From: Craspedostauros australis
Taxonomy: Eukaryota > Bacillariophyta > Bacillariophyceae > Mastogloiales > Achnanthaceae
DNA length: 64,000 nucleotides
NCBI GenBank assembly: GCA_026770025.1
Contig: JAMXDE010000003.1
Location: 2,852,001-2,916,000 of the forward strand
Direction: 5' to 3'
The notes under the pieces are model-generated. The model was not told the origin of the DNA, ran no database searches, and saw only the letters and a list, made by a program, of their open reading frames with translations. Made by a program: the position numbers and the translations under genes. The stretch's first letter is position 1. Every line of letters starts with the position of its first letter. This document shows, piece after piece, positions 2,124 to 22,465 of this stretch.

Positions 2124-3638
2124 TCATACCCTCCGAAAGACAAGCGAAGCGTTCGTGCCGCCGAACCCGAAGCTGTTGTTGATCGCTGTCTCAAGATCGC
2201 CATTGGTCGGCGTTGGCTCCGAGTTCAAACGGAAGAAATATTCATCCTGCGGTGGCGGCTCGTCCAGATTCAACGTCGGCGGTATCATTTGATCGACGAG
2301 GCTCTGCACTGTGAACGCTGCTTCCAACGCACCTGCTGCTCCCAGCAGATGTCCCGAGGCGCCCTTTGTACTGCTTACGTGAGGGGTGAATCCCGTTGAC
2401 GTTAATGTCGACGTCGATGTTGATGAAGATGTTGCCGATGATGACTGCTCCAGACTGCTCTGAAGCACGGACTGGATGACCCTGGCCTCGATGTCATCAC
2501 CTTTGGGCGTGGACGTTGCATGTGCATTGACGTATCCAACATGCAACGCAATGTTGCTCGTGAAACCGCCATCGCTGCGGACCGCAGCCCCAGGAGTGTG
2601 ACCACCAGTGCTTTCATTCCTTTGCAGCCCTTCTTTGGCCTGTTCCAATGCCATTCGCATGGCACGTTGTGCGCCGCTGCCATTCTCATCCGGCGCTGTG
2701 CTGTGGAAGGCATCGCCCGTCAACCCATACCCGCAGATCTCTGCCAGTATGGGCGCATCGCGTCGCAACGCATGCTCGTATTCCTCCAGCACCAACACTG
2801 CAGCACCTTCTCCCATCACAAATCCATCACGTTGGCCATCGAACGGCCGCGATGACTGCTGCGGCAACCATGCCGATCTTGCGTCACCCTCGCTACTCGT
2901 AGGCTGATACCTGGTGGATAAGGCGCGCAGCCGACAGAACCCAGCAATGCTCAGCGGATCGATGCAGGATTCGGCTCCCCCCGCCAACATGATGTCGGCA
3001 TTGTTGTATTGGATGCATCTCATGGCGTCGCCGATCGCATGCGATCCAGCGGCGCACGCCGTGGACACGGCATGATTGGGCCCCCGCAATCCGTGTTCGA
3101 TGGAGACCCGCCCAGCTGCCGAATTGGTGAGCACCTTCGGGACGAAATGAGGCGACAGTCTTCTGTACCCTCTCGTTTCCAGTGTCCGGTACGTGTCCAC
3201 CACCTCGCGTACGCTGGACATGCCCGATCCGATGCAAACACCGACGCGATCTTTCTTCAACACAGCATCATCCTTGCGCACATTATCATCGTCGTCGTCA
3301 TCGTCGTCCGCTGCCAACCATTCCTTCAACCGTGACGCATCCATCGCCCCATCTGCCGCACGCAGTGCCAGCTCCACAAACCGAGGCGTCTTGGTATCGC
3401 GGCATTTCACATTCGGCACGGACGCCGCCACTTGGCATGGGAGAGACCGAGCGTATTCCCAATCTTTCTGAAACGCTTCGCTGCTGGGATCGTTGCCGTG
3501 CTGGTGCAGCAGGGCCTCGCGCAGCGTCGTGATACCCGATTCGCTCGCCAGCAGGGACTTCCAGGAGTGTTCGAACGTTGGTCCGAGCGGAGTGATGGCA
3601 CCGATGCCTGTCACGACGACGCGGCGGTGAAACGACAT
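2124..3638 (-). CDS. Beta-ketoacyl-ACP synthase II (KAS II / OXSM-like)
   Basis: A 504-residue condensing enzyme that would elongate acyl-ACP with malonyl-ACP in type II fatty acid synthesis, in the mitochondrion or plastid. The Cys-His-His triad is visible: Cys195 in STACAAGSH, His373 in NAHATSTPKGD and His430 in KGASGHLLGAAGALEA. The end, NSFGFGGTNASLVFRRV, is typical of KAS II. Two lineage-specific insertions stand out, an eight-Asp run near 111-118 and a Ser/Thr stretch near 396-416 just before the second His. The start chosen is the Met of MSFHRRVVVTGIG, where the family's first strand begins. The same frame stays open to another Met at 3884, adding 82 Ser/Thr/Arg-rich residues that could be an organelle transit peptide, so the longer form is a real alternative. 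Confidence 0.93.
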   Translation of the reverse strand: MSFHRRVVVTGIGAITPLGPTFEHSWKSLLASESGITTLREALLHQHGNDPSSEAFQKDWEYARSLPCQVAASVPNVKCRDTKTPRFVELALRAADGAMDASRLKEWLAADDDDDDDDNVRKDDAVLKKDRVGVCIGSGMSSVREVVDTYRTLETRGYRRLSPHFVPKVLTNSAAGRVSIEHGLRGPNHAVSTACAAGSHAIGDAMRCIQYNNADIMLAGGAESCIDPLSIAGFCRLRALSTRYQPTSSEGDARSAWLPQQSSRPFDGQRDGFVMGEGAAVLVLEEYEHALRRDAPILAEICGYGLTGDAFHSTAPDENGSGAQRAMRMALEQAKEGLQRNESTGGHTPGAAVRSDGGFTSNIALHVGYVNAHATSTPKGDDIEARVIQSVLQSSLEQSSSATSSSTSTSTLTSTGFTPHVSSTKGASGHLLGAAGALEAAFTVQSLVDQMIPPTLNLDEPPPQDEYFFRLNSEPTPTNGDLETAINNSFGFGGTNASLVFRRV

Positions 3639-4265: not shown

Positions 4266-6914
4266 CTAATTGTCGGAGGCGAATACCACCGTGAAGTTGT
4301 AGGAAACAATATCGCCCAGCACTCCGAATGTTGCGTCGCATACTGGCAGGATCATGACCTCCCAATCCCCCTCGACGAAATCGATCGGACTGTTCAACGT
4401 CCCCGGCAACGTGAAGGGAGGTAGCGTATCCGTTGTCGGGGTTGGAACTTGATTATTGGCATCGAAGGCGACCGCACCGACACGATTATTTCCCTGCGCC
4501 TCGAGCTGCAGATCCGCAACGCCGAAATTATCGAATACATCCTCTATCACAATGGTGTCACCGTTGTCGATCTCGAAAAGGCGAGTACCGTCCGTGGCGT
4601 CGATGAGCCACAGGGCGTCGATCCCGAGATTGGATGATGAGCATTCATCGTTGTCGCGAGTCACCTTGAATGATACCGATGCCATTGCTCCCATCGTCTG
4701 CATGGTCGAATCGCAGAACGGTGTCGCAACCAACGTCCACGATCCGGAAACCAAATCAAGCGAAAGGTTGGGGTCGATGGGGATCGAGAACGGCGCCTCG
4801 GTGTCCACTGTCATCGGGGCATCGGGGAGCGGCATGTTGGATTGGAACCCAACAGCACCGACTGTAGGCGTCGTTTCCACCTCGAACTTGAAATCCGTCA
4901 GGCCGATCATCGCCAGGGAGTCAACATTGAACGTATTCCCGTCCGTGATGGGCGCGATCCGCGAGCCGCTAGTTGCCTCCACGAGCCAGATGTTCACGAT
5001 CTGAAGCGCGGTGGGGTCGCAGCTCGTTGTGGGAGAGCTGGTAGGCAAGGCTCCGGTCACCTCGAACGTGATCGTCCTTGATTCTCCAGCTTCCGAACTT
5101 CCCGCTCCCACGAACGGTATGGCTGAGATGGTCTGTCTTCCAGGCACGAAGCTGAACGGTGTCCCGCTCGATTCTGGTGTCGTGTATGGCGCCGCGCTGT
5201 CCGCCAGCAATCCGATAAGGGGCCGGTCGGATCCAAATCGCACTATGCCAACTGTCGGAGGACTCGTCTCGGCTTCAATTTGGAATGCCGAGGTGCCGAA
5301 TGTCGTGGTCAGATCACCAAGATCAAGAACAGCACCGTTGCTGATTTTTTGCAGTCGTTCCTGCGTCGAGGCTCGGATCAGCCAAAACTCGACCACTGAA
5401 ATGATGCCTGTTGGTGCCACTGTGGGGGCTGTGGTTGGCAACGACGTTGGATTCACACTATCTACACCGGATGGCGAGGTCGAAGGTTCCATCGTGAGCG
5501 GACGTTGCGACGGAGCAGACGAATCGGCATTCGTTGGCGGTTGCGATAGAGCTGGAGTCGGCGATGCCGTAGGCGAAGACGTGCCACTTGGCGTTGGATT
5601 ATTTGATGGGGCTGCCGAATCCGGGGGCGTTGCAGACGGTGCAGCTGATTGATCCAACTGAGTTGGAGTGGAGGACTCCTGCGGAGTGGGCATGAGGGTT
5701 TCCTGAATCTGTGAAGGAACGGAAGATGGCCGCAGCGAAGGTCTGCTCGTGCCAAGGATCTCTGTTGGACTCTGCGATTGCTCTGGAGTGGGCATAGCCG
5801 TGGCTCCCATCTCTGTCGGGGAGAGAGACTGCTGGAGTGTGGGTGCGTCAGTTTGCTGCATGTCTGTTGGGCTTCCGCTAACATCTGGACTTGGGGCTGC
5901 CGTTGGTACATCCGTTGGCGCACCCGTCGGAGAGCTTGATGGGGAGCCTGATGGTATGCCTGTTGGGGACGACGTATCGACAGCATCGCTTTCGACCTGG
6001 AATGTCAGCGTTCTGGGCTGGCCGGCTGCTCCTCCTGCATCTCCCTCGCAGAATGGCGTCGCTACGATCTCCCAGTTCCCAGGCAATAGCGCCAGCTGAC
6101 GCTGCACCCCCACCATTTCGGACCCTGCGAAGTAGGGGTAATCATTCTCAGTCTTCGTCTGCACTACGGAGCCCATGGGGTTTGACAGGGTGTTCTGGAA
6201 TCGCACGCTCCCCACCATCTCTGGCGACGTCTGGGCCTCGATGTTGAAGGTCGTGGTGAAAAAGATCGCCGACAGGGCCTCCACAGATATCGTTTCTCCA
6301 TCGGTCAGCCGCCGCAGCCGCATCTCGGATCTGGTATCTATGAGCCAGAAGGATCGGATGCTGGTTTCGCATTGTGGAGCAGTCGGGGATTCCGTTGGAG
6401 AGACGGATGCGAACGTCGGGAGTGGCGTCACTTGCACCGGCATCGAGGTCGGCAGCATTATCTCCATCTTATCGCTGGAACTCGATGAGCTCTTGTCGCT
6501 CTTCGAAGACTTGTCCTTGCTACTGAAGCCGTTCTCGTCCCGTGATTTCGTGGATTTGGAGGTGCGACTCGGAGTCGACGCGACGGGTCCATGCGTGAGG
6601 TGTGGGAAGAACGAGTTGTTGTCATCGCTACTGCCACCATTCCCGCCATCTGTGCTTCCCCCGTTCGATTTGCTGCCCTTGCCAACCTTATCAGACTTGG
6701 CCGACTTGGCCGATTTCTGATTCTGGCTCTTCGGCAACTTGCCCTTTCCTCTCCCCTTTCCGCCATGATCTCCCTTGATCAGCTTCATTCTCCCATTGGG
6801 CTGACCGAATTCATGTCGTGCCCTCTGGATCCTCTTCTCCCTGGCATCCGCAATAGCGGAAACCACCAGCAGGAGCGCCCATATCATCAATGTCCCGCGC
6901 CTTCTCATAGTCAT
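4266..6914 (-). CDS. Secreted surface protein, four tandem beta-sandwich domains, Lys/Ser- and Pro/Thr-rich linkers
   Basis: An 882-residue protein with a signal peptide (MTMRRRGTLMIWALLLVVSA, ending near ADA). Residues about 45-150 are rich in Lys and Ser (KGKGRGKGKL, KSAKSAKSDK, SSKDKSSKSDK). A domain of about 115 residues then occurs four times, near 186-308, 508-625, 640-755 and 765-880. Each copy follows the pattern WLI-x-A-x(n)-NG, F-x-IEA-x-T-x-P-x-VG-x-V-x-F and TPFC-x(n)-F-x-V. This resembles a repeat I know from secreted bacterial and algal proteins that contain TVGSVRF-like strands. Residues about 312-505 are a Pro/Thr/Ser-rich linker of the kind common in diatom wall proteins. No membrane segment or anchor follows. 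A role in the cell wall or in adhesion is inferred; no enzymatic motif is seen. Confidence 0.85.
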   Translation of the reverse strand: MTMRRRGTLMIWALLLVVSAIADAREKRIQRARHEFGQPNGRMKLIKGDHGGKGRGKGKLPKSQNQKSAKSAKSDKVGKGSKSNGGSTDGGNGGSSDDNNSFFPHLTHGPVASTPSRTSKSTKSRDENGFSSKDKSSKSDKSSSSSSDKMEIMLPTSMPVQVTPLPTFASVSPTESPTAPQCETSIRSFWLIDTRSEMRLRRLTDGETISVEALSAIFFTTTFNIEAQTSPEMVGSVRFQNTLSNPMGSVVQTKTENDYPYFAGSEMVGVQRQLALLPGNWEIVATPFCEGDAGGAAGQPRTLTFQVESDAVDTSSPTGIPSGSPSSSPTGAPTDVPTAAPSPDVSGSPTDMQQTDAPTLQQSLSPTEMGATAMPTPEQSQSPTEILGTSRPSLRPSSVPSQIQETLMPTPQESSTPTQLDQSAAPSATPPDSAAPSNNPTPSGTSSPTASPTPALSQPPTNADSSAPSQRPLTMEPSTSPSGVDSVNPTSLPTTAPTVAPTGIISVVEFWLIRASTQERLQKISNGAVLDLGDLTTTFGTSAFQIEAETSPPTVGIVRFGSDRPLIGLLADSAAPYTTPESSGTPFSFVPGRQTISAIPFVGAGSSEAGESRTITFEVTGALPTSSPTTSCDPTALQIVNIWLVEATSGSRIAPITDGNTFNVDSLAMIGLTDFKFEVETTPTVGAVGFQSNMPLPDAPMTVDTEAPFSIPIDPNLSLDLVSGSWTLVATPFCDSTMQTMGAMASVSFKVTRDNDECSSSNLGIDALWLIDATDGTRLFEIDNGDTIVIEDVFDNFGVADLQLEAQGNNRVGAVAFDANNQVPTPTTDTLPPFTLPGTLNSPIDFVEGDWEVMILPVCDATFGVLGDIVSYNFTVVFASDN

Positions 6915-10156: not shown

Positions 10157-10880
10157 AGTGTCGACTACGGTTGCGTAGAGTACTGCTTTGTATGTAACGC
10201 GCTCCGTCCGAAAGAAGAGTATGTGGTCTTGGATCAACTCACGATACCTGCAACTTTTGCGCTGGTGGGAACTCATGCTCAGCAAACGATCACGTCACGA
10301 TCTGTGGTTGGCGATTGGGGCGACTTTCTCTCCCGCCTCGATGTCGGCGCAAGAAAATCGTGATTGATCGGTCTTGTTGGGGCAAACAAACCATCCCAAA
10401 GGGTTTGTGTGGTGCTCGGCACCAGTGGAAAGGTGACCGTGAACGCAAACATCCAATTTCTGTTCTTTTGTCTCGTCCGCTTCCTTTTTGCTCACAATTT
10501 CTTCACTCGACCAAAGTGCGAAAGCCAAACTCGAGTGGTAAGTTTGCCGCATTGGAATCCTCGGTTTCCGCCATGCCTTCATATTGCGATGCACCTGCAC
10601 CAATTCTGCTCTGCTCTACTCGACTCTACTCTATGTCACCCCACCTCACCTCACTCACCATGCATCCACCCTGCTCGTCGCCCAACGCAAAAACAATACG
10701 CCTGCCGTTGCTTTCAATATCAGATCTTCCGCTTAGCGTCTCCAACGTGCCGCCAAGCCACTTCTCTTCCAACAGACTCCTTGCGACTTCGACATACAAC
10801 GTGTCGACCAACCACAAATCAAAGTAAAAGCTACCAACAAGCCAACAAACCAAACCAGACCAAACCAAACAACCATCACG
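6915..10880. other. 4-kb stretch with no supportable gene
   Basis: This separates two divergently transcribed genes for secreted proteins. Short frames of up to about 196 codons exist on both strands, but none has a domain or coding-like composition, and I could not join any across plausible introns. Simple repeats occur near 8359-8395 (TACA/CATA) and 10122-10160. The last 80 bp before 10881 are rich in CAACC/CAAAC and look like the 5' leader of the giant repeat gene. A noncoding RNA or an exon-rich gene cannot be excluded. Confidence 0.5.
10122..10160. repeat. 7-bp tandem repeat (GTTGAGA)n
   Basis: About five copies of a 7-bp unit, GTTGAGA, flanked by degenerate copies that include GTCGAG, about 720 bp upstream of the giant repeat gene. 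Confidence 0.85.
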
Positions 10881-13800
10881 ATGATGTTTGCCAGGAAGGG
10901 TGCTGTCTGGGCTTTGCTCGTATCCGCCCTTGCCGCCATTCCCGCTGTGTACGCTCAAGGCGACGCCGTAGCCACCAGCGATGAACCCGCATCTGGCACT
11001 GAGGTCTGTCCGTTGGACTATGAGCTCCTCCATTTCACGGAAGGCGCCAGCTACAATCTTCCTCCCATCGAGATTGTCAGCCAAGGAAAGACCTTCGTCG
11101 AGTTCAAGGTCTACAACGTGTTTTCCACGGCTGGATCCATCAAGGAGATCTACACCGAGTACCAGGAGAACAATCTCGATAGAGCCACGTGTACCATGGA
11201 CGCCGATCTGGAGCCCGGGAAGCCCGCAGATGGGGTCTTCCGCGCGGAATGCCTCTGCCTCAAGCCCGTCGCCCTCGTCTCCCTCTACGTCCGAGACCCA
11301 ACCATCAACGCAACCATTGGTACTGGCAAGACCCCAGAGTGCTGCCATGCCGATTTGACCAACGGATATCCAACCATCAAGTTCACCTTCCTCCTCGACT
11401 GCGTGCCAGACTGTGACCCCACCCCGTTCGCAGTCTGCGGCAACGGAAAGCTCGAAACAGGCGAGCTGTGTGACGACGGCAACGACGTCAACGACGACGG
11501 GTGCACCAACGAGTGCCTCCTCCCGAAGTGCGGAGATGGCATTGTGCAAGACGACGAAGAGTGCGACATGGGCGCAGCCAACTCCAACAAAGAGGACGCC
11601 GCCTGCACCGAAAGCTGCACAATCCCGAAGTGCGGAGATGGTATCCTCCAAGGCAGCGAGGAGTGTGACGATGGCAACACAATCAACGACGACAGCTGCT
11701 CGAACTCGTGCACTACCGAAGTTTGCGGTGACGGCATCAAACAAGAAGGCGAAGAATGCGACGATGGCAATGCCATTAACAACGATGAGTGCACCAACAA
11801 ATGCAAATTGCCAATCTGCGGCGATGGCATCAAGCAAGAAGGCGAAGAATGCGACGATGGCAATTCCGACGACGAGGATGGTTGCACATCTCAATGCAAG
11901 ATCCTTGTTTGCGGTGACGGCATCCTGCAGGGAGACGAAGAATGTGACGATGGAAACAAGGTCAGCAACGATGGATGCAGCGAAACCTGCAAATCGGAGG
12001 TGTGCGGCGACGGCATCAAGCAGGACGACGAGGAATGCGATCACGGATCGCAGAACTCCAACGGCCCGAACACCAGATGCAGCACTGACTGCGAACTTCC
12101 AGTGTGTGGAGACGGTTCCGTCAACAAGCGATTGGGCGAGGAATGTGACGATGGTAACGATGTGAACGACGATGAATGCACCGACGAATGTAAGCTCCCA
12201 CGGTGCGGCGACGGCATCCTGCAAGGCGACGAGGAATGCGACGACGGAAACAACGACGCCAGTGACGGCTGCACCAACGAATGCAAGCTGGCAGTTTGCG
12301 GCGATGGAATCACAGGACCAAATGAAGAATGCGATCTCGGATCGCAGAACTCCGACGGCCCCAACGCCCAGTGCACGAAGGATTGCAATCTCCCACGGTG
12401 CGGCGACGGCATCCTCCAAAATGGAGAGGAGTGCGACGACGGAAACAAGAACAACGGTGACACCTGCACCAACCAATGCAAGAAAGCACGATGTGGTGAC
12501 GGCATTGTCGGACCTAACGAACAGTGTGATCTCGGATCCCAGAACTCCAACTCCCCTGGTGCACAGTGCACAACCAAGTGTCAGAAGCCAAGATGTGGTG
12601 ATGGCATCAAGCAGCAAGGTGAGCAGTGCGATCTCGGACGAAGCAACTCCGACTCAACCAACAGCAAGTGCTCCACCACCTGCAAGCTCCCACGCTGCGG
12701 TGACGAGATCCTCCACCCATCCAGAAACGAGGAATGCGATCTCGGCGAAAACAACTCCAACGGACCCAACACCAGATGCAACGCCAACTGCAAGACCCCC
12801 AAGTGTGGTGACGGCATCATCAACAAGCGACTGGGTGAAGAATGCGACAAGGGCAGCAACAACTCCGACGGCCCCAACGCGCAGTGCACCACCACATGCA
12901 CCCTGCCCACTTGCGGCGATGGCATCGTTCAAGGCGACGAGGAATGCGACGATGGCAACGAGGACAACACCGATGGCTGCACCAACAACTGCAAGAAAGC
13001 AAAATGCGGCGACGGCATCGTCGGACCTAATGAACAGTGCGACCTCGGATCTCGCAACTCCAATTCCCCCGGTTCCCAGTGCACAGCCAAGTGCCAGAAG
13101 CCAAAATGTGGTGATGGCATCCGCCAAAATGGAGAGGAATGTGACGATGGTGACAAGATCAACAACAACGGCTGCACCAACACCTGCAAGAAGCCACGAT
13201 GTGGCGACGGAATCAAGCAGGCCAACGAAGAATGCGACAAGGGGCGGCACAACTCGAACGCAGCAAACGCCCAGTGCACCGCAGACTGTACCATCCCCAA
13301 GTGTGGTGACGGCATCAAGCACATCGGTGAACTATGCGACGATGGAGACAAGGTCAACAACGACGAGTGCACCAACAACTGCAAGGTCCCAACTTGCGGC
13401 GATGGCATCAAGCAGAACGGAGAGCAGTGCGACGACGGCAACAAGAACAACGCCGATGGTTGCACCAACAACTGCAGACTCCCACGCTGCGGTGATGGCA
13501 TCAAGCAAGCCAACGAGCAGTGCGACGATGGAAACAAGGACAACACCGATGGCTGCACCAACCAATGCAAGTTGGCTCGATGCGGCGATGGTATCAAGCA
13601 GGACAACGAACAGTGCGACCTCGGACCAAACAACAACAACGGCCCCAACACCAGCTGCTACACCGACTGCAAGGTCCCACGCTGTGGTGACAACCGTCTC
13701 AACAACAAATCGGGTGAGCAGTGCGATCTCGGAGGCCAGAACTCCAATGGTGCAAACACCAGATGCAACAAGAACTGCAAGCTCCCGCGCTGCGGCGATG

Positions 13801-16800
13801 GCCTTGTCAACAAGAGGCTCGGCGAGCAGTGCGATCGTGGAGCACAGAACTCTGACGGCCCCAACGCTCAGTGCACGAAGGATTGCAAGCTTCCGGTGTG
13901 TGGCGACGGTATCAAGCACAAGGATGAGGAATGCGATGATGGCAACAACGACAACAGTGATGACTGCACCAACCAATGCAAGAAAGCAGTCTGCGGCGAC
14001 GGCATTGTCGGACCAAATGAACAGTGTGATCGCGGATCGCAGAACTCCGACGGCCCCAACGCCCAGTGTACGGAGGATTGCAAGCTCCCGGCATGCGGAG
14101 ACGGCATCCTGCAAGGCGACGAACAATGCGATGACGGCAACAAGAACAACAACGATGGCTGCACCAACCAATGCAAGAAAGCACGATGTGGCGATGGCAT
14201 CGTCGGGCCTAATGAACAGTGTGATCTCGGATCCCAGAACTCCAACGGACCTAACGCCCGCTGCACTCTCGAATGTACCCGCCCCAAGTGTGGCGACGGC
14301 ATCAAGCAGCAAGGTGAGCAGTGTGATCTTGGACCAAACAACTCCGACTCAACCAACAGCAAGTGCTCCACCACCTGCAAGCTCCCACGCTGCGGTGACG
14401 AGATCCTCCACCCATCCAGAAACGAGGAATGCGATCTCGGCGAAAACAACTCCAACGGACCAAACACCAGATGCAACGCCAACTGCAAGACCCCCAAGTG
14501 TGGTGACGGCATCATCAACAAGCGACTGGGTGAAGAATGCGACAAGGGCAGCAACAACTCCGACGGCCCCAACGCGCAGTGCACCACCACGTGCACCCTG
14601 CCCACTTGCGGCGATGGCATCGTTCAAGGCGACGAGGAATGCGACGATGGCAACGAGGACAACACCGATGGCTGCACCAACAACTGCAAGAAAGCAAAAT
14701 GCGGCGACGGCATCGTCGGACCTAATGAACAGTGCGACCTCGGATCTCGCAACTCCAATTCCCCCGGTTCCCAGTGCACAGCCAAGTGCCAGAAGCCAAA
14801 ATGTGGTGATGGCATCCGCCAAAATGGAGAGGAATGTGACGATGGTGACAAGATCAACAACAACGGCTGCACCAACACCTGCAAGAAGCCACGATGTGGC
14901 GACGGAATCAAGCAGGCCAACGAAGAATGCGACAAGGGGCGGCACAACTCAAACGCAGCAAACGCCCAGTGCACCGCAGACTGTACCATCCCCAAGTGTG
15001 GTGACGGCATCAAGCACATCGGTGAACTATGCGACGATGGAGACAAGGTCAACAACGACGAGTGCACCAACAACTGCAAGGTCCCAACTTGCGGCGATGG
15101 CATCAAGCAGAACGGAGAGCAGTGCGACGACGGCAACAAGAACAACGCTGATGGTTGCACCAACAACTGCAGACTCCCACGCTGCGGTGATGGCATCAAG
15201 CAAGCCAACGAGCAGTGCGACGATGGAAACAAGGACAACACCGATGGCTGCACCAACCAATGCAAGTTGGCTCGATGCGGCGATGGTATCAAGCAGGACA
15301 ACGAACAGTGCGACCTCGGACCAAACAACAACAACGGCCCCAACACCAGCTGCTACACCGACTGCAAGGTCCCACGCTGTGGTGACAACCGTCTCAACAA
15401 CAAATCGGGTGAGCAGTGCGATCTCGGAGGCCAGAACTCCAATGGTGCAAACACCAGATGCAACAAGAACTGCAAGCTCCCGCGCTGCGGCGATGGCCTT
15501 GTCAACAAGAGGCTCGGCGAGCAGTGCGATCGTGGAGCACAGAACTCTGACGGCCCCAACGCTCAGTGCACGAAGGATTGCAAGCTTCCGGTGTGTGGCG
15601 ACGGTATCAAGCACAAGGATGAGGAATGCGATGATGGCAACAACGACAACAGTGATGACTGCACCAACCAATGCAAGAAAGCAGTCTGCGGCGACGGCAT
15701 TGTCGGACCAAATGAACAGTGTGATCTCGGATCTCGCAACTCCAATTCCCCTGGTGCACAGTGCACAACCAAGTGCCAGAAGCCAAGATGTGGTGATGGC
15801 ATCCTACAAGGCGACGAACAGTGCGACGATGGCAACAAGAACAACGGTGACACCTGCACCAACCAATGCAAGAAAGCACGATGTGGCGACGGCATTGCCG
15901 GACCTAACGAACAGTGCGATCTCGGATCCCAGAACTCCAATTCCCCTGGTGCACAGTGCACAACCAAGTGCCAGAAGCCAAGATGTGGTGATGGCATCCG
16001 CCAAAATGGAGAGGAATGTGACGATGGTGACAAGATCAACAACAACGGCTGCACCAACACCTGCAAGAAGCCACGATGTGGCGACGGCATTGTCGGACCT
16101 AACGAACAGTGCGATCTCGGATCTCACAACTCCAATTCCCCTGGTTCCCTGTGCACAACCAAGTGCCAGAAGCCAAGATGCGGTGATGGCATCCGCCAAA
16201 ATGGAGAGGAGTGCGACGATGGCAACAAGAACAACAACGATGGCTGCACCAACCAATGCAAGCGCGCACGGTGTGGCGACGGCATTGTCGGACCTAACGA
16301 ACAGTGCGATCTCGGATCTCACAACTCCAATTCCCCTGGTTCCCTGTGCACAACCAAGTGCCAGAAGCCAAGATGTGGTGATGGCATCCGCCAAAATGGA
16401 GAGGAGTGCGACGATGGCAACAAGAACAACAACGATGGCTGCACCAACCAATGCAAGCGCGCACGGTGTGGCGATGGCATTGTCGGACCTAACGAACAGT
16501 GCGATCTCGGATCCAAGAACTCCAATTCCGCCAGTTCACAGTGCACAACCAAGTGCCAGAAGCCAAGATGTGGTGATGGCATCCGCCAAAATGGAGAGGA
16601 GTGCGATGACGGAAACAAGAACAACAACGATGGCTGCACCAACCAATGCAAGAAAGCACGATGTGGTGACGGCATCGTCGGACCTAACGAACAGTGTGAT
16701 CTCGGATCCCAGAACTCCAACTCCCCTGGTGCACAGTGCACAACCAAGTGTCAGAAGCCAAGATGCGGTGATGGCATCAAGCAGCAAGGTGAGCAGTGTG

Positions 16801-19800
16801 ATCTTGGACCAAACAACTCCGACTCAACCAACAGCAAGTGCTCCACCACCTGCAAGCTCCCACGCTGCGGTGACGAGATCCTCCACCCATCCAGAAACGA
16901 GGAATGCGATCTCGGCGAAAACAACTCCAACGGACCAAACACCAGATGCAACGCCAACTGCAAGACCCCCAAGTGTGGTGACGGCATCATCAACAAGCGA
17001 CTGGGTGAAGAATGCGACAAGGGCAGCAACAACTCCGACGGCCCCAACGCGCAGTGCACCACCACATGCACCCTGCCCACTTGCGGCGATGGCATCGTTC
17101 AAGGCGACGAGGAATGCGACGATGGCAACGAGGACAACACCGATGGCTGCACCAACAACTGCAAGAAAGCAAAATGCGGCGACGGCATCGTCGGACCTAA
17201 TGAACAGTGCGACCTCGGATCTCGCAACTCCAATTCCCCCGGTTCCCAGTGCACAGCCAAGTGCCAGAAGCCAAAATGTGGTGATGGCATCCGCCAAAAT
17301 GGAGAGGAATGTGACGATGGTGACAAGATCAACAACAACGGCTGCACCAACACCTGCAAGAAGCCACGATGTGGCGACGGAATCAAGCAGGCCAACGAAG
17401 AATGCGACAAGGGGCGGCACAACTCGAACGCAGCAAACGCCCAGTGCACCGCAGACTGTACCATCCCCAAGTGTGGTGACGGCATCAAGCACATCGGTGA
17501 ACTATGCGACGATGGAGACAAGGTCAACAACGACGAGTGCACCAACAACTGCAAGGTCCCAACTTGCGGCGATGGCATCAAGCAGAACGGAGAGCAGTGC
17601 GACGACGGCAACAAGAACAACGCCGATGGTTGCACCAACAACTGCAGACTCCCACGCTGCGGTGATGGCATCAAGCAAGCCAACGAGCAGTGCGACGATG
17701 GAAACAAGGACAACACCGATGGCTGCACCAACCAATGCAAGTTGGCTCGATGCGGCGATGGTATCAAGCAGGACAACGAACAGTGCGACCTCGGACCAAA
17801 CAACAACAACGGCCCCAACACCAGCTGCTACACCGACTGCAAGGTCCCACGCTGTGGTGACAACCGTCTCAACAACAAATCGGGTGAGCAGTGCGATCTC
17901 GGAGGCCAGAACTCCAATGGTGCAAACACCAGATGCAACAAGAACTGCAAGCTCCCGCGCTGCGGCGATGGCCTTGTCAACAAGAGGCTCGGCGAGCAGT
18001 GCGATCGTGGAGCACAGAACTCTGACGGCCCCAACGCTCAGTGCACGAAGGATTGCAAGCTTCCGGTGTGCGGCGACGGTATCAAGCACAAGGATGAGGA
18101 ATGCGATGATGGCAACAACGACAACAGTGATGACTGCACCAACCAATGCAAGACGCCAATATGTGGTGATGGCATCCGCCAAAATGGAGAAGAGTGCGAC
18201 GATGGCAACAAGAACAACAACGACGCCTGCACCAACCAATGCAAGCGCGCACGATGTGGCGACGGCATTGTCGGACCGAACGAACAGTGCGACGATGGCA
18301 ACAAGAACAACGGTGACGCCTGCACCAACCAATGCAAGAAGGCACGGTGTGGTGATGGGTTCAAAGCACCCAATGAAGAGTGCGACGACGGCAACACCAA
18401 CAGCAACGACAGTTGCACCAACAACTGCAAGAAAGCACGATGTGGCGACGGCATTGTCGGACCTAACGAACAGTGCGATCTCGGATCCCAGAACTCCAAT
18501 TCCCCTGGTGCACAGTGCACAACCAAGTGCCAGAAGCCAAGATGTGGTGATGGCATCCGTCAAAATGGAGAGGAGTGCGACGATGGCAACAAGAACAACA
18601 ACGATGGCTGCACCAACCAATGCAAGCGCGCACGGTGTGGCGATGGCATTGTCGGACCTAACGAACAGTGCGATCTCGGATCCAAGAACTCCAATTCCCC
18701 TGGTGCACAGTGCACAACCAAATGCCAGAAGCCAAGATGTGGTGATGGCATCCGCCAAAATGGAGAGGAGTGCGATGACGGAAACAAGAACAACAACGAT
18801 GGCTGCACCAACCAATGCAAGCGCGCACGGTGTGGCGACGGCATTGTCGGACCTAACGAACAGTGCGATCTCGGATCTCACAACTCCAATTCCGCCAGTT
18901 CACAGTGCACAACCAAGTGCCAGAAGCCAAGATGCGGTGATGGCATCCGCCAAAATGGAGAGGAGTGCGACGATGGCAACAAGAACAACAACGATGGCTG
19001 CACCAACCAATGCAAGCGCGCACGATGTGGCGATGGCATTGTCGGACCTAACGAACAGTGCGATCTCGGATCCAAGAACTCCAATTCCCCTGGTTCCCTG
19101 TGCACAACCAAATGCCAGAAGCCAAGATGTGGTGATGGCATCCGTCAAAATGGAGAGGAGTGCGACGATGGCAACAAGAACAACAACGATGGCTGCACCA
19201 ACCAATGCAAGCGCGCACGATGTGGCGATGGCATTGTCGGACCTAACGAACAGTGCGATCTCGGATCCAAGAACTCCAATTCCGCCAGTTCACAGTGCAC
19301 AACCAAGTGCCAGAAGCCAAGGTGTGGTGATGGCATCCGTCAAAATGGAGAGGAGTGCGACGACGGTAACACGAGGACCACCGACAGCTGCACCAACCAA
19401 TGCAAGCGCGCACGATGTGGCGACGGCATCGTCGGACCTAACGAACAGTGCGATCTCGGATCTCGCAACTCCAATTCAGCCGGTGCACAGTGCACAACCA
19501 AGTGTCAGAAGCCAAGATGTGGTGATGGCATCCGCCAAAATGGAGAGGAGTGCGACGACGGAAACAACATCAACAACGATGGCTGCACCAACCAATGCAA
19601 GCGCGCAAAATGCGGTGACGGCATCGTTGGGCCTCACGAACAGTGTGATCTCGGATCTCGCAACTCCAATTCCGCCAGTTCACAGTGCACAACCAAGTGC
19701 CAGAAGCCAAGGTGTGGTGATGGCATCCGTCAAAATGGAGAGGAGTGCGACGACGGTAACACGAGGACCACCGACAGCTGCACCAATCAATGCAAGCGCG

Positions 19801-21497
19801 CACGGTGTGGCGACGGCATCGTCGGACCTAACGAACAGTGTGATCGAGGATCTCACAACTCCAATTCCGCCAGTTCACCGTGCACAACCAAGTGCCAGAA
19901 GCCAAGATGTGGCGATGGCATCCGCCAAAATGGAGAGGAGTGCGACGACGGCAACAAGAACAACAATGACAGCTGCACCAACCAATGCAAGCGCGCACGA
20001 TGTGGCGATGGAATCACAGGACCCAACGAACAGTGTGATCTCGGATCTCGCAACTCCAATTCCGCCAGTTCACAGTGCACAACCAAGTGCCAGAAGCCAA
20101 GGTGTGGCGATGGCATCCGTCAAAATGGAGAGGAGTGCGACGACGGTAACACGAGAACCACCGACAGCTGCACCAACCAATGCAAGAAAGCGCGGTGTGG
20201 CGACGGCATCGTCGGACCTAACGAACAGTGTGATCGAGGATCTCACAACTCCAATTCAGCCGGTTCCCAGTGTACAACCAAGTGCCAAAAGCCAAGATGT
20301 GGTGATGGTATCCGTCAAAATGGAGAGGAGTGCGACGACGGCAACACGAAGAACACGGACAGCTGCAGGAACGACTGCAAGAAGGCACGATGCGGTGATG
20401 GGATCGTTTCAACTGGCGAAGAGTGCGATGATGGAAACAATAACAACAATGACGGTTGCGACACCAACTGCAAGAGGCGTGCCATTGTATGCCCGGAGGT
20501 GAAGCTCGATTTCAACAACTATCCCAGTACAGGATTCATCTATGACGAGTGGTGGGGACCCAAGGGCGTCAAGGTGATCGCGAAGGCCAACAACAGAAAC
20601 GCCGGATACACCCCCCGACCACGATCAGGATGCCGATCTGGATCACTCACCTGCTACTGCAAGGACTGGAGGAGCAGCCGCCCTACAAGCTGCCCACGCT
20701 GGCAGAACACCAACAACGGCGGAGGAGCTGCCCGCGTGTTCGACACATGGAAACCAAGAGGATACAAGCGCGGTACGTACGAGGAGCGCAAGGGATGGAA
20801 CAACCCGCTCTGCGATGCCAATGACAAGTACGCTGGAGATGACGACTTGGGCGCGCCCAACAGATCCTGCGGTGGCCCTGGTATCGGCGACGGAGGCAAG
20901 AAGGGCAGGAAGTACCAGAACTGCCAAAAGCTCGGCAGAGTCCTCATCATCCAGGAGGGCAAGAAGACCTGCCCAGACGACGTCGGCTCCCCAGGAGGAA
21001 CCATCTCTTTCGAATTCGACACCAACAGGCTCGGCGGAGTCGAGGTCACACTGGGCAAGTTCATCGACATCGATGACGGACACACGAACCCGATCGTCGA
21101 TTTCACATTGGTCGGCAGGTCAAGTCCAACTCCCGGGCTCCGAAAGTACACCCAGATCACAGGAGGCAACGGAGTTTTCGACCTCAGGGTCTCCGTCAAG
21201 AACGTCAGACGCGTGCAGATCAGCTACAGAGGATCCGGCTGCATCGCCGAGGTGCGCTTCCGCCCCAGCAAGTGCCCACGACGTATGCTGCGTGTTGAGG
21301 AGGACGGATCGTTCAACCTTGGCAACTACACCAGCACCGAAGAGTATGACGACTTCCAGGACGACTACGAATCGGAATTCATCCAGCTCGGCGGCTCAGC
21401 GCAGGGTCATCAGTACGAAGACACTGAGCCAGCCATTGACACCGACCACGTCGTCTACGCCGAGGAGGCTGAGGACATGTTCCCCATGGATGCATAA
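10881..21497 (+). CDS. Giant secreted protein with about 92 cysteine-rich DUF4215-type repeats
   Basis: One uninterrupted frame of 3,538 codons. It has a signal peptide (cleavage likely after AIPAVYA), a unique N-terminal domain of about 160 residues containing six cysteines, and then repeats from about residue 184 to 3,205. Each repeat is 31-36 residues with the pattern CGDGI-x(2)-x-E-x-CD(D/L)G, then C-x(3)C; counting them by eye gives about 92. This matches the DUF4215 / Myxococcus cysteine-rich repeat, whose paired cysteines are expected to form disulphides. A unique C-terminal region of about 330 residues (from LDFNNYPSTGFIYDEWWGP) contains a probable beta-sandwich and ends in a very acidic tail. 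No membrane segment is present. Acidic DDGN motifs could bind calcium. It is probably a long, stiff extracellular or cell-surface fibre; that role is inferred. Confidence 0.92.
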   Translation: MMFARKGAVWALLVSALAAIPAVYAQGDAVATSDEPASGTEVCPLDYELLHFTEGASYNLPPIEIVSQGKTFVEFKVYNVFSTAGSIKEIYTEYQENNLDRATCTMDADLEPGKPADGVFRAECLCLKPVALVSLYVRDPTINATIGTGKTPECCHADLTNGYPTIKFTFLLDCVPDCDPTPFAVCGNGKLETGELCDDGNDVNDDGCTNECLLPKCGDGIVQDDEECDMGAANSNKEDAACTESCTIPKCGDGILQGSEECDDGNTINDDSCSNSCTTEVCGDGIKQEGEECDDGNAINNDECTNKCKLPICGDGIKQEGEECDDGNSDDEDGCTSQCKILVCGDGILQGDEECDDGNKVSNDGCSETCKSEVCGDGIKQDDEECDHGSQNSNGPNTRCSTDCELPVCGDGSVNKRLGEECDDGNDVNDDECTDECKLPRCGDGILQGDEECDDGNNDASDGCTNECKLAVCGDGITGPNEECDLGSQNSDGPNAQCTKDCNLPRCGDGILQNGEECDDGNKNNGDTCTNQCKKARCGDGIVGPNEQCDLGSQNSNSPGAQCTTKCQKPRCGDGIKQQGEQCDLGRSNSDSTNSKCSTTCKLPRCGDEILHPSRNEECDLGENNSNGPNTRCNANCKTPKCGDGIINKRLGEECDKGSNNSDGPNAQCTTTCTLPTCGDGIVQGDEECDDGNEDNTDGCTNNCKKAKCGDGIVGPNEQCDLGSRNSNSPGSQCTAKCQKPKCGDGIRQNGEECDDGDKINNNGCTNTCKKPRCGDGIKQANEECDKGRHNSNAANAQCTADCTIPKCGDGIKHIGELCDDGDKVNNDECTNNCKVPTCGDGIKQNGEQCDDGNKNNADGCTNNCRLPRCGDGIKQANEQCDDGNKDNTDGCTNQCKLARCGDGIKQDNEQCDLGPNNNNGPNTSCYTDCKVPRCGDNRLNNKSGEQCDLGGQNSNGANTRCNKNCKLPRCGDGLVNKRLGEQCDRGAQNSDGPNAQCTKDCKLPVCGDGIKHKDEECDDGNNDNSDDCTNQCKKAVCGDGIVGPNEQCDRGSQNSDGPNAQCTEDCKLPACGDGILQGDEQCDDGNKNNNDGCTNQCKKARCGDGIVGPNEQCDLGSQNSNGPNARCTLECTRPKCGDGIKQQGEQCDLGPNNSDSTNSKCSTTCKLPRCGDEILHPSRNEECDLGENNSNGPNTRCNANCKTPKCGDGIINKRLGEECDKGSNNSDGPNAQCTTTCTLPTCGDGIVQGDEECDDGNEDNTDGCTNNCKKAKCGDGIVGPNEQCDLGSRNSNSPGSQCTAKCQKPKCGDGIRQNGEECDDGDKINNNGCTNTCKKPRCGDGIKQANEECDKGRHNSNAANAQCTADCTIPKCGDGIKHIGELCDDGDKVNNDECTNNCKVPTCGDGIKQNGEQCDDGNKNNADGCTNNCRLPRCGDGIKQANEQCDDGNKDNTDGCTNQCKLARCGDGIKQDNEQCDLGPNNNNGPNTSCYTDCKVPRCGDNRLNNKSGEQCDLGGQNSNGANTRCNKNCKLPRCGDGLVNKRLGEQCDRGAQNSDGPNAQCTKDCKLPVCGDGIKHKDEECDDGNNDNSDDCTNQCKKAVCGDGIVGPNEQCDLGSRNSNSPGAQCTTKCQKPRCGDGILQGDEQCDDGNKNNGDTCTNQCKKARCGDGIAGPNEQCDLGSQNSNSPGAQCTTKCQKPRCGDGIRQNGEECDDGDKINNNGCTNTCKKPRCGDGIVGPNEQCDLGSHNSNSPGSLCTTKCQKPRCGDGIRQNGEECDDGNKNNNDGCTNQCKRARCGDGIVGPNEQCDLGSHNSNSPGSLCTTKCQKPRCGDGIRQNGEECDDGNKNNNDGCTNQCKRARCGDGIVGPNEQCDLGSKNSNSASSQCTTKCQKPRCGDGIRQNGEECDDGNKNNNDGCTNQCKKARCGDGIVGPNEQCDLGSQNSNSPGAQCTTKCQKPRCGDGIKQQGEQCDLGPNNSDSTNSKCSTTCKLPRCGDEILHPSRNEECDLGENNSNGPNTRCNANCKTPKCGDGIINKRLGEECDKGSNNSDGPNAQCTTTCTLPTCGDGIVQGDEECDDGNEDNTDGCTNNCKKAKCGDGIVGPNEQCDLGSRNSNSPGSQCTAKCQKPKCGDGIRQNGEECDDGDKINNNGCTNTCKKPRCGDGIKQANEECDKGRHNSNAANAQCTADCTIPKCGDGIKHIGELCDDGDKVNNDECTNNCKVPTCGDGIKQNGEQCDDGNKNNADGCTNNCRLPRCGDGIKQANEQCDDGNKDNTDGCTNQCKLARCGDGIKQDNEQCDLGPNNNNGPNTSCYTDCKVPRCGDNRLNNKSGEQCDLGGQNSNGANTRCNKNCKLPRCGDGLVNKRLGEQCDRGAQNSDGPNAQCTKDCKLPVCGDGIKHKDEECDDGNNDNSDDCTNQCKTPICGDGIRQNGEECDDGNKNNNDACTNQCKRARCGDGIVGPNEQCDDGNKNNGDACTNQCKKARCGDGFKAPNEECDDGNTNSNDSCTNNCKKARCGDGIVGPNEQCDLGSQNSNSPGAQCTTKCQKPRCGDGIRQNGEECDDGNKNNNDGCTNQCKRARCGDGIVGPNEQCDLGSKNSNSPGAQCTTKCQKPRCGDGIRQNGEECDDGNKNNNDGCTNQCKRARCGDGIVGPNEQCDLGSHNSNSASSQCTTKCQKPRCGDGIRQNGEECDDGNKNNNDGCTNQCKRARCGDGIVGPNEQCDLGSKNSNSPGSLCTTKCQKPRCGDGIRQNGEECDDGNKNNNDGCTNQCKRARCGDGIVGPNEQCDLGSKNSNSASSQCTTKCQKPRCGDGIRQNGEECDDGNTRTTDSCTNQCKRARCGDGIVGPNEQCDLGSRNSNSAGAQCTTKCQKPRCGDGIRQNGEECDDGNNINNDGCTNQCKRAKCGDGIVGPHEQCDLGSRNSNSASSQCTTKCQKPRCGDGIRQNGEECDDGNTRTTDSCTNQCKRARCGDGIVGPNEQCDRGSHNSNSASSPCTTKCQKPRCGDGIRQNGEECDDGNKNNNDSCTNQCKRARCGDGITGPNEQCDLGSRNSNSASSQCTTKCQKPRCGDGIRQNGEECDDGNTRTTDSCTNQCKKARCGDGIVGPNEQCDRGSHNSNSAGSQCTTKCQKPRCGDGIRQNGEECDDGNTKNTDSCRNDCKKARCGDGIVSTGEECDDGNNNNNDGCDTNCKRRAIVCPEVKLDFNNYPSTGFIYDEWWGPKGVKVIAKANNRNAGYTPRPRSGCRSGSLTCYCKDWRSSRPTSCPRWQNTNNGGGAARVFDTWKPRGYKRGTYEERKGWNNPLCDANDKYAGDDDLGAPNRSCGGPGIGDGGKKGRKYQNCQKLGRVLIIQEGKKTCPDDVGSPGGTISFEFDTNRLGGVEVTLGKFIDIDDGHTNPIVDFTLVGRSSPTPGLRKYTQITGGNGVFDLRVSVKNVRRVQISYRGSGCIAEVRFRPSKCPRRMLRVEEDGSFNLGNYTSTEEYDDFQDDYESEFIQLGGSAQGHQYEDTEPAIDTDHVVYAEEAEDMFPMDA
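12594..13991 (+). repeat. 14-repeat higher-order block, copy 1
   Basis: Encodes repeats 13-26 (466 residues) of the giant protein. Reading it beside the copies at 14289 and 16764 shows only a handful of base differences outside the first repeat, for example at 12892-12897 (ACATGC here and in copy 3, ACGTGC in copy 2). The first repeat differs more (GRSNSDS here, GPNNSDS in the other two). Confidence 0.9.
14289..15686 (+). repeat. 14-repeat higher-order block, copy 2
   Basis: Offset 1,695 bp (565 codons) from copy 1, so the reading frame is kept. It encodes repeats 30-43 in the same order as copy 1. Three different repeats (27-29) lie between copies 1 and 2. Confidence 0.9.
16764..18161 (+). 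repeat. 14-repeat higher-order block, copy 3
   Basis: Offset 2,475 bp (825 codons) from copy 2 and encoding repeats 55-68. Identity ends in the linker after the last repeat, where AAAGCAGTC of copies 1 and 2 is replaced by ACGCCAATA. Eleven other repeats (44-54) lie between copies 2 and 3. Confidence 0.9.
18441..20390 (+). repeat. Ten tandem 195-bp dimers in the giant repeat gene
   Basis: From 18441 the coding sequence alternates a 34-residue unit (CGDGIVGPNEQCDLGS type) and a 31-residue unit (CGDGIRQNGEECDDGN type). The period is exactly 195 bp for ten cycles (18441, 18636, 18831 and so on, to 20196). Variation is concentrated in the short segment after DLGS and after DDGN. A shorter stretch of the same dimer occurs near 16089-16670. 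Confidence 0.92.
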
Positions 21498-22465
21498 ACA
21501 CAAGGTATTCTCCAAAACACGAAGTAATACAAAACTCATAGTAACAAACAAACAAACAAACAAACAAACAAACAAACGAGAATTGACCCTCAAGAGCCAG
21601 GTTCCGACATGCGCGCGAGTACTCTACTCCACTTGACTCGACCTTCCTGAACCTCCCAAATTCATCAGCTGCGGAATTGACGATGGCGACATTCCAACAA
21701 CGTCACGGTATGCCCTCTACGGGTCCAGTGTGGCACTCTAATCTGTTGAGATTATTGTGCTGTGTTTCCTCATAGAGTGTGATACTCTGCTTCGCTCTGG
21801 CGTGAAGCATTATGACACTATGTAATGCAATAGTGGTCTAGTTGTGGTTGGGACCTGCATACCCATTATGATTTTCGCCCATGAAGTGTGCGCAGGTTTG
21901 AGTAACGGGAAACGAAACAGAGCAACAAGTTTGTGATCGGGATTTTATGCATGACTAAAAAGTCACCGTCATGCTGAGGAGAAGAGATCCATTCGACTCA
22001 AATGCGCAATGTGTGTGCCCAATCGAATCACGCCCTCTAAAGTACCGCTCGTGACTGGCAGGTGAGAATTCACTCCGAGCTCTTTCGGCAAACTTCGTTC
22101 CGTCAACATCTTTGCAGAGAGGTGGACACACAGAGACATGTGTCGTGCCATCTGCGAAACACCACGACCGCGTCCTTTTCGTGTGCAGAGAGAGAGAGAG
22201 GCCGCGCGAATGCGAACACACAAACCAACAGCAACTGGAGAACAAAGGCGCCAGTCTTCCTCTTCCCCACAACAAAGAAACAGAGAAAGAAAGGAACGTG
22301 GGCGGGAATGTAATACATATCATATTCTATTTTACTATTCTATTATACGACCTAATACAAGTAGATCAGAATAGGTACATTATTCTCTCCAAACACTCAA
22401 CTCCTCAGAACTGTCCAACCTCGGCCTCCTTCCTATCGCAGAACTGTCACCAAGCACGACCCACC
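21498..22465. other. Intergenic region with (AAAC)n microsatellite
   Basis: The 3' flank of the giant gene holds a tetranucleotide run of AAAC at about 21544-21577, some 50 bp after the stop. The rest is the upstream region of the next plus-strand gene, with an AT-rich stretch near 22310-22390. No gene is supported. Confidence 0.7.

What the first reader, a model, noticed from the sequence alone, without database searches (positions are those of the whole stretch)
10881..21497. A 3,538-residue intron-free secreted protein built of about 92 disulphide-type repeats
A signal peptide, about 92 DUF4215-type repeats and a unique C-terminal domain in one uninterrupted 10.6-kb frame is extreme for this family, where I know mostly of short arrays. 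In a microbial eukaryote it would be a very long extracellular fibre and deserves structural and localisation work.
Basis: partly seen in the sequence, partly recalled or inferred. Interest (0 to 1): 0.75.

Follow-up and report, generated by a model that had tools for sequence, protein, structure and literature searches.

The report
Diatom surface protein with expandable stalk
What is very probably a diatom gene encodes a very long secreted protein in which 92 small cysteine-rich repeats separate two end domains; sister genes keep the ends but have 3 to 42 repeats, so it may be an adjustable stalk in the cell wall or its sticky coat, which nobody has yet tested in cells.

Summary
Window 10881-21497 (+) is one open frame of 3,538 codons: signal-peptide-like start, N-terminal domain, 92 four-cysteine units (DUF4215 84 stretches; TIGR02232 82), C-terminal domain, acidic tail. 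The host is very probably a diatom (silicon transporters).

The C-terminal domain is not unique: 15 further matches in this genome and relatives at 31 prokaryotic loci, yet no Pfam or NCBIfam model reported it in the window protein.

The gene is the longest of a family with the same two ends and 3, 13, 15, 15, 42, 42, 42 or 92 units, plus a copy whose frame breaks after 27. Five further genes have the ends and no units. Three 1.26-kb blocks of the window array differ at 1-4 sites, all synonymous, so its length is recent. An RXL motif, known from diatom wall-protein precursors (PMC4557024, passages), follows the C-domain in 8 of 8 array genes with that domain and 0 of 5 arrayless ones.

Best reading: a secreted, length-variable spacer of wall or extracellular matrix. 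Function is inferred; the repeat fold failed.

The parts
10166..10880 (+). 5' flank (putative promoter and 5' UTR) duplicated with the gene
   Evidence: blastn: similarity at 77.6-84.4% runs out to 10166-10170 in the C5 and both C6 copies and to 9927 in the C10 copy
10881..21497 (+). whole open frame, 3,538 codons plus stop
10881..10955 (+). signal-peptide-like N-terminus, residues 1-25
   Evidence: hydropathy and sequence; no predictor run
10956..11435 (+). N-terminal Cys-containing domain, residues 26-185; related to DUF7633 (PF24636) through paralogues
   Evidence: 33 matches in the genome including itself; paralogue L052, 53% identical over 159 aa, scores DUF7633 E 4e-9; the window protein itself gave no DUF7633 hit at E<=1
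11436..20483 (+). array of 92 DUF4215/TIGR02232 units, residues 186-3201
12644..13900 (+). near-identical block, copy 1 (within units 13-26)
   Evidence: 1-4 differences in 1,257 nt from the other copies
14339..15595 (+). near-identical block, copy 2 (within units 30-43)
16814..18070 (+). near-identical block, copy 3 (within units 55-68)
20487..21296 (+). C-terminal domain of about 270 aa, residues 3203-3472, without a Pfam or NCBIfam match
   Evidence: 16 matches in the genome including itself; 31 prokaryotic loci; model pLDDT 74.3, pTM 0.73
21279..21290 (+). RRML (RXL-type) motif 3 residues after the last Cys of the C-domain
   Evidence: the only RRxL and one of two RxL in the protein; same place in 8 of 8 array genes that have the C-domain
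21291..21494 (+). acidic C-terminal tail, 68 residues (11 Glu, 10 Asp, 1 Arg)
21498..21744 (+). 3' flank duplicated with the gene
   Evidence: blastn similarity to the C5 and both C6 copies ends at 21744

Best explanation
A secreted, disulphide-rich structural protein of the diatom cell wall or extracellular matrix. Shown by sequence: a signal-peptide-like start; a DUF7633-related N-domain; a DUF4215 array; a C-domain shared with prokaryotic proteins; and an RXL motif followed by an acidic tail. Inferred, in order: (1) the protein enters the secretory pathway; (2) each unit closes two disulphides, so the array is a protease-resistant stalk whose length grows with unit number; (3) the acidic tail is cut off at the RXL motif; (4) the C-domain, a beta-sandwich that may bind carbohydrate, and the N-domain hold the two ends to wall or mucilage partners; (5) unequal recombination between near-identical units lengthens or shortens the stalk, so that the gene family offers linkers of different reach.
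For: Same two ends around 3, 13, 15, 15, 42, 42, 42 and 92 units and around none in five genes: the array is the variable part. Coding selection on the units: dN/dS 0.10-0.39 in 6 of 6 pairs. The near-identical blocks arose or were homogenised recently. RXL 3 residues after the C-domain in 8 of 8 array genes with that domain, and within 40 residues after the DUF7633 domain in 6 of 6 PT-linker proteins; RXL is described as a processing motif of silaffins, frustulins, cingulins and silacidins (PMC4557024, passages). No hydrophobic 19-mer above 1.5 beyond residue 40, so no obvious membrane anchor. DUF7633 relatives carry PT linkers above Pfam's cut-off in 1 of 3 scanned, and a frame holding a C-domain relative also has choice-of-anchor A (TIGR04215, E 2e-36) and PT linkers. 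Prokaryotic C-domain proteins carry SdrD_B in 3 and DUF11 plus Por_Secre_tail in 1 of the 10 scanned, which suggests surface or secreted proteins.
Against: No transcript, peptide or localisation data. Array model failed (pLDDT 39.7), so neither stalk shape nor disulphide pairing is shown. Foldseek matches of the C-domain model are weak: 0 of 1,779 at E<=0.001, query TM-scores 0.13-0.28 in the 50 rows shown. The C-domain is only mildly constrained (dN/dS 0.56-0.89 in 5 pairs). RXL motifs occur in proteins of several compartments and cleavage here is untested. Five genes with the same ends have no array, so the array is not needed for the ends to be kept.
Confidence: 0.57

Rival explanations
1. 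A frustulin-like coat: the array's acidic and Asn-rich loops bind calcium or other metals and the protein shields the silica; length is incidental.
For: The array is acidic overall (net -156, of which -66 lies in units 1-10). Frustulins are described as secreted diatom wall glycoproteins with repeated acidic Cys-rich domains that bind Ca2+ and with RXL motifs (PMC4557024, passages).
Against: Net charge fades along the array (-3 for units 71-80, -1 for units 81-90). A [DN]x[DN]x[DN]xC pattern, the EF-hand-like spacing I looked for, occurs in only 7 of 92 units. Units are 31-36 aa against about 50 in frustulin ACR domains (PMC4557024). No ACR alignment could be made here.
Confidence: 0.2
2. A recognition protein (mating, self/non-self or microbe binding) in which changing unit number and sequence gives diversity.
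For: Tandem paralogues, fast change of unit number, and mildly constrained C-domain; C-domain model resembles lectin-type sandwiches weakly.
Against: Units keep dN/dS well under 1 and the block differences are all synonymous: no sign of diversifying selection on the array.
Confidence: 0.12
3. The 92-unit length is an assembly expansion of a gene of roughly 40 units like its paralogues, or a decaying copy.
For: Three blocks at 99.7-99.9% identity; paralogues have 42 units; the C10 copy is broken, so decay does happen in the family.
Against: Copies differ at 4 sites in total; the array contains stretches outside the blocks not found in one-to-one order in the 42-unit copy; the frame is intact over 10.6 kb; contig of 3.87 Mb.
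Confidence: 0.1

Closest known systems
DUF4215 (PF13948) / TIGR02232 myxo_disulf_rpt proteins
   Same: Unit sequence, four Cys, tandem arrangement.
   Different: 92 units in one frame with a DUF7633-related domain before and the undescribed C-domain behind. An archaeal MAG frame (L076) has the C-domain with DUF4215 units on both sides, but few units.
Frustulins of diatoms
   Same: Secreted, repeated acidic Cys-rich domains, RXL motifs (from PMC4557024, passages).
   Different: Frustulin ACR domains are about 50 aa and bind Ca2+ (PMC4557024); here units are 31-36 aa and binding is untested.
Pleuralins of diatoms
   Same: Modular wall proteins with a Cys-rich repeat array between other domains (PMC4557024, passages).
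   Different: PSCD repeats are 90 aa after a proline-rich domain; here 31-36 aa and no proline-rich domain.
Diatom adhesive proteins: trailins with choice-of-anchor A (recalled; only the title of Zackova Suchanova et al. 2023 seen in a reference list) and GDPH/vWD proteins (PMC7335047, PMC8027222, passages)
   Same: A frame of this genome joins choice-of-anchor A with a relative of the window's C-domain.
   Different: The window protein has no choice-of-anchor A, no GDPH motif and no PT repeats.

Membership tests
DUF4215 / TIGR02232 | Score above the curated cut-off | tested here: met
   1,270.8 bits against 27; 1,246.1 against 20.8
DUF7633 (PF24636) | Score above the curated cut-off | tested here: inconclusive
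   No hit in the window protein at E<=1. Its N-domain finds G000:C15:1352753 at E 4e-16, which is the genome's best DUF7633 match; paralogue L052 scores 37.1 bits against 27
Frustulins | ACR domains of about 50 aa | tested here: inconclusive
   Units are 31-36 aa; only DUF4215 reported by Pfam at E<=1; no ACR reference was aligned and whether Pfam holds one was not checked
Frustulins | Calcium binding and cell-wall location | not testable with these tools
   needs protein and cells
Diatom RXL-processed wall precursors | RXL motif at a domain boundary | tested here: met
   RRML 3 residues after the C-domain's last Cys; cleavage itself untested
Pleuralins | 90-aa PSCD repeats | tested here: not met
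   unit length 31-36 aa
Trailins / choice-of-anchor A proteins | choice-of-anchor A domain (TIGR04215) | tested here: not met
   not reported at E<=1
GDPH adhesive proteins | Gly-Asp-Pro-His motif | tested here: not met
   0 occurrences
Carbohydrate-binding modules with galactose-binding-like or jelly-roll fold | C-domain fold match | tested here: inconclusive
   CBM6, CBM32, CBM51 and lectinolysin among the top rows, E 1e-3 to 5e-3, query TM 0.13-0.28; Fab, tailspike and other unlike folds in the same list

The most novel reading that the evidence does not exclude
An RXL-processed family of adjustable molecular stalks in the diatom wall: two fixed adhesive ends, one of them an undescribed domain shared with prokaryotic surface proteins, held apart by a DUF4215 rod whose length is tuned from 3 to 92 units by recombination, so that one genome carries a set of linkers of graded reach.
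Probability: 0.33. Interest if true: 0.68.

Novelty: new variant of a known kind. Interest (0 to 1): 0.52.

Why it matters
DUF4215 has no assigned function: no paper of the library searched names it (0 papers) and no solved structure matched by sequence (0 at E<=1; 0 at E<=10). A family with constant ends and 0 to 92 units in one genome is a natural length series, in which the role of unit number can be tested gene by gene. The C-domain, found in this genome and at 31 prokaryotic loci without a Pfam or NCBIfam assignment in the window protein, is a candidate new domain of surface proteins and connects the stalk family to a choice-of-anchor A protein of the same genome.

Tried and rejected
Overlapping gene in frame +1 (open 2,778 codons): rejected as a by-product of codon make-up and repetition. 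It does exceed 200 of 200 synonymous shuffles, but the shuffles break the repeat structure.

EF-hand-like calcium loops: only 7 of 92 units fit the spacing I looked for, so not claimed.

Viral or phage origin: the C-domain alone, five to seven units alone, the N-domain alignment and the C-domain alignment gave no confirmed relative in viral contigs; none in plasmids or phages.

Rusticalin-type cysteine-rich repeats (PMC7379824, passages): the passages name neither CGDG, DUF nor TIGR02232; no alignment was made, and I did not pursue it.

Structure of the array: alignments A4 and A5 were out of register or mis-cut and were dropped; A6 (11 four-unit windows) gave pLDDT 39.7. A sequence profile of the C-domain found three weak PDB matches, the best PfhB2 (6u8t) at E 0.0033 over 88 positions; not used.

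von Willebrand A domains seen by eye in L041-L044: Pfam did not report them at E<=0.1 in the three scanned, so they are not claimed.

Bacterial origin of the C-domain by transfer: the 15 rows of this genome form one side of a branch (97/94) apart from 27 prokaryotic rows; with no close prokaryotic relative and an unrooted tree, direction cannot be told.

Full report
What is there. The frame at window 10881-21497 on the + strand runs 3,538 codons without a stop and contains no N. It reads: signal-peptide-like residues 1-25; an N-domain (26-185); 92 units that begin CGD or CGN (186-3201); a C-domain (3203-3472); the motif RRML; and an acidic tail of 68 residues. Pfam reports only DUF4215 at E<=1 (84 stretches), NCBIfam only TIGR02232 (82 stretches). 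Unit lengths are 31, 33, 34 or 36 residues; 31- and 34-residue units alternate over long stretches.

Is it more than chance. Long open frames are cheap in this array: the +1 frame is open for 2,778 codons, against a mean of 1,209 and a maximum of 2,659 in 200 synonymous-codon shuffles. The coding claim therefore rests on other facts. Unit-to-unit differences fall at codon position 3 in 45-50% of cases. dN/dS for units 1-7 is 0.10-0.39 in six paralogue pairs, for the N-domain 0.26-0.45 in six pairs, for the C-domain 0.56-0.89 in five pairs. Three paralogues keep uninterrupted frames of 1,886 residues. Expression was not testable.

Host. The window lies in a genome of 74.8 Mb in 90 contigs with 88 silicon-transporter matches, 32 of them near full length and 28 of these without a stop. 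One of 14 control genomes gave a match below the cut-off. I take it to be a diatom.

The family. DUF4215 has 158 matches in the genome (150 of 257 candidates scored, so a lower bound); the listed rows fall on the window gene and on contigs C5, C6, C10, C12 and C37, and the 14 control genomes gave none. Read out, the genes have 92 (window), 42 (C5), 42 and 42 (C6), 15, 13 and 15 (C12) and 3 (C37) units between the same two ends. The C10 copy reads 27 units and then leaves the frame; six more units stand in another frame and no C-domain match was found there. Five genes on C31 (two) and C1 (three) have N-domain and C-domain next to each other with no DUF4215; the three on C1 continue into Ser-Asn-Gly repeats. 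In a tree of the C-domain the eight array genes form one group (100/98), which fits one gain of the array followed by expansion. Similarity of the C5 and C6 copies to the window extends about 0.7 kb upstream and 0.25 kb downstream, so whole genes were duplicated.

How the window gene got so long. Three stretches of 1,257 nt (12644-13900, 14339-15595, 16814-18070) differ from one another at 4, 1 and 3 sites, and the 4 variable sites are all synonymous. Against the C6 paralogue, dS is about 0.12-0.15 in the N-domain and units 1-7. The blocks are thus much younger than the gene split, or were homogenised by gene conversion. In the unit map each 42-unit copy has one counterpart of the block, and several window units map best to out-of-order units. 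Recombination between near-identical units is the simplest engine (inference). An assembly expansion is not excluded without reads.

The C-domain. It has 16 matches in this genome, the window included; one is a fragment and one is weak (E 1e-4). A profile scan of prokaryote genomes confirmed 31 loci, among them Acidobacteria, Planctomycetota, Bacteroidota, Verrucomicrobia, Gammaproteobacteria, a cyanobacterium and a Woesearchaeota archaeon; most records are metagenome-assembled, so single attributions may be wrong. Across 28 aligned rows a D-x-DLG-x-PN core and a GPG-x-G motif stand out. No NCBIfam model reached E<=0.001 in any of these 28 rows (best 0.0066, one row). Of ten prokaryotic frames scanned, three carry SdrD_B, one carries DUF11 and Por_Secre_tail, and one, the archaeal L076, carries DUF4215 on both sides of the C-domain. 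DUF4215 occurs in 3 of the 28 prokaryotic genomes that bear the C-domain, so the pairing is occasional, not general. The AlphaFold2 model has pLDDT 74.3 and pTM 0.73, with a low-confidence stretch around residues 30-80 and 90-120. Foldseek gave no match at E<=0.001 out of 1,779; the top rows mix MAM, CBM6, CBM32, CBM51, lectinolysin and Eph ligand-binding domains with unlike folds. A beta-sandwich of galactose-binding type is a fair guess, no more.

The N-domain. It has 33 matches in the genome. Paralogues score above the cut-off of DUF7633, and 26 DUF7633 places are found in the genome; the window's own N-domain falls below detection. Relatives sit in long frames with PT linkers. One frame of 8,027 aa contains choice-of-anchor A and a C-domain relative. 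Choice-of-anchor A is recalled from trailins, adhesive proteins of diatom trails; of that paper only the title was seen, in a reference list.

The RXL clue. In diatom wall-protein precursors RXL marks proteolytic processing, and silaffin repeats end in RRIL or RRNL (PMC4557024, passages; PMC5525289, passages). Here RXL lies 3 residues after the last Cys of the C-domain in 8 of 8 array genes that have that domain, and is absent in the 5 arrayless ones; the eight proteins hold 16 RXL in 12,963 residues, eight of them at this place. In six of six DUF7633 proteins with PT linkers that I read, RXL also follows the DUF7633 domain within 40 residues. The array genes are near relatives, so these are not eight independent observations.

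Mechanism. I commit to a secreted spacer: two ends that bind wall or mucilage partners, held apart by a disulphide-rich array, with the acidic tail removed at RXL. Shown: parts, order, variation of unit number, coding constraint, motif. Inferred: secretion, disulphides, shape, binding, cleavage. The one test of shape that I could run, a fold of four units, failed. Rivals are a frustulin-like metal-binding coat, a recognition protein, and an assembly expansion.

Known and new. The repeat is a known family of unknown function: 0 papers of the library for DUF4215 and for TIGR02232, and two papers, seen in the listing only, that use the words Myxococcus cysteine-rich repeat. The search listed ten of 32 papers, none with DUF7633. 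What is new is the architecture, the 3-to-92 length series in one genome, and the C-domain.

Noticed in passing
G000 genome, e.g. L053-L055: 88 silicon-transporter (PF03842) matches, 32 near full length and 28 of those without a stop: a very large expansion compared with the few copies I recall from model diatoms.
   Followed up: no
L023 (G000:C12 near 21353-21910, - strand): Frame of 8,027 aa with choice-of-anchor A (TIGR04215 E 2e-36), a C-domain relative, long PT linkers and, by eye, repeated DUF7633-like domains: a candidate giant trailin-like adhesive.
   Followed up: partly
L097 (G000:C23:342000-346000, - strand): End of a 9,808-aa frame with PT-Ser-Gly linkers, a DUF7633 domain and RRLL, then a Cys-rich end also seen in L041-L044.
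   Followed up: partly
L019-L021 (G000:C1 near 970 kb, 975 kb and 1,687 kb): Genes with the same N- and C-domains but a Ser-Asn-Gly repeat tail in place of the DUF4215 array.
   Followed up: no
L048 (G000:C10:445500-453000): Paralogue whose frame breaks after 27 units and lacks a C-domain match.
   Followed up: no
window 12172-20502 (+): A second + frame of 2,776 codons overlaps the array; its length exceeds 200 of 200 synonymous shuffles but probably reflects repetition.
   Followed up: partly
window 38803-44874 (-): A 2,023-codon frame with HAT/TPR repeats resembling PRP39-type splicing factors.
   Followed up: no
window 4266-6914 (-): An 882-codon frame with a PT-repeat match below the cut-off, possibly another secreted protein.
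   Followed up: no
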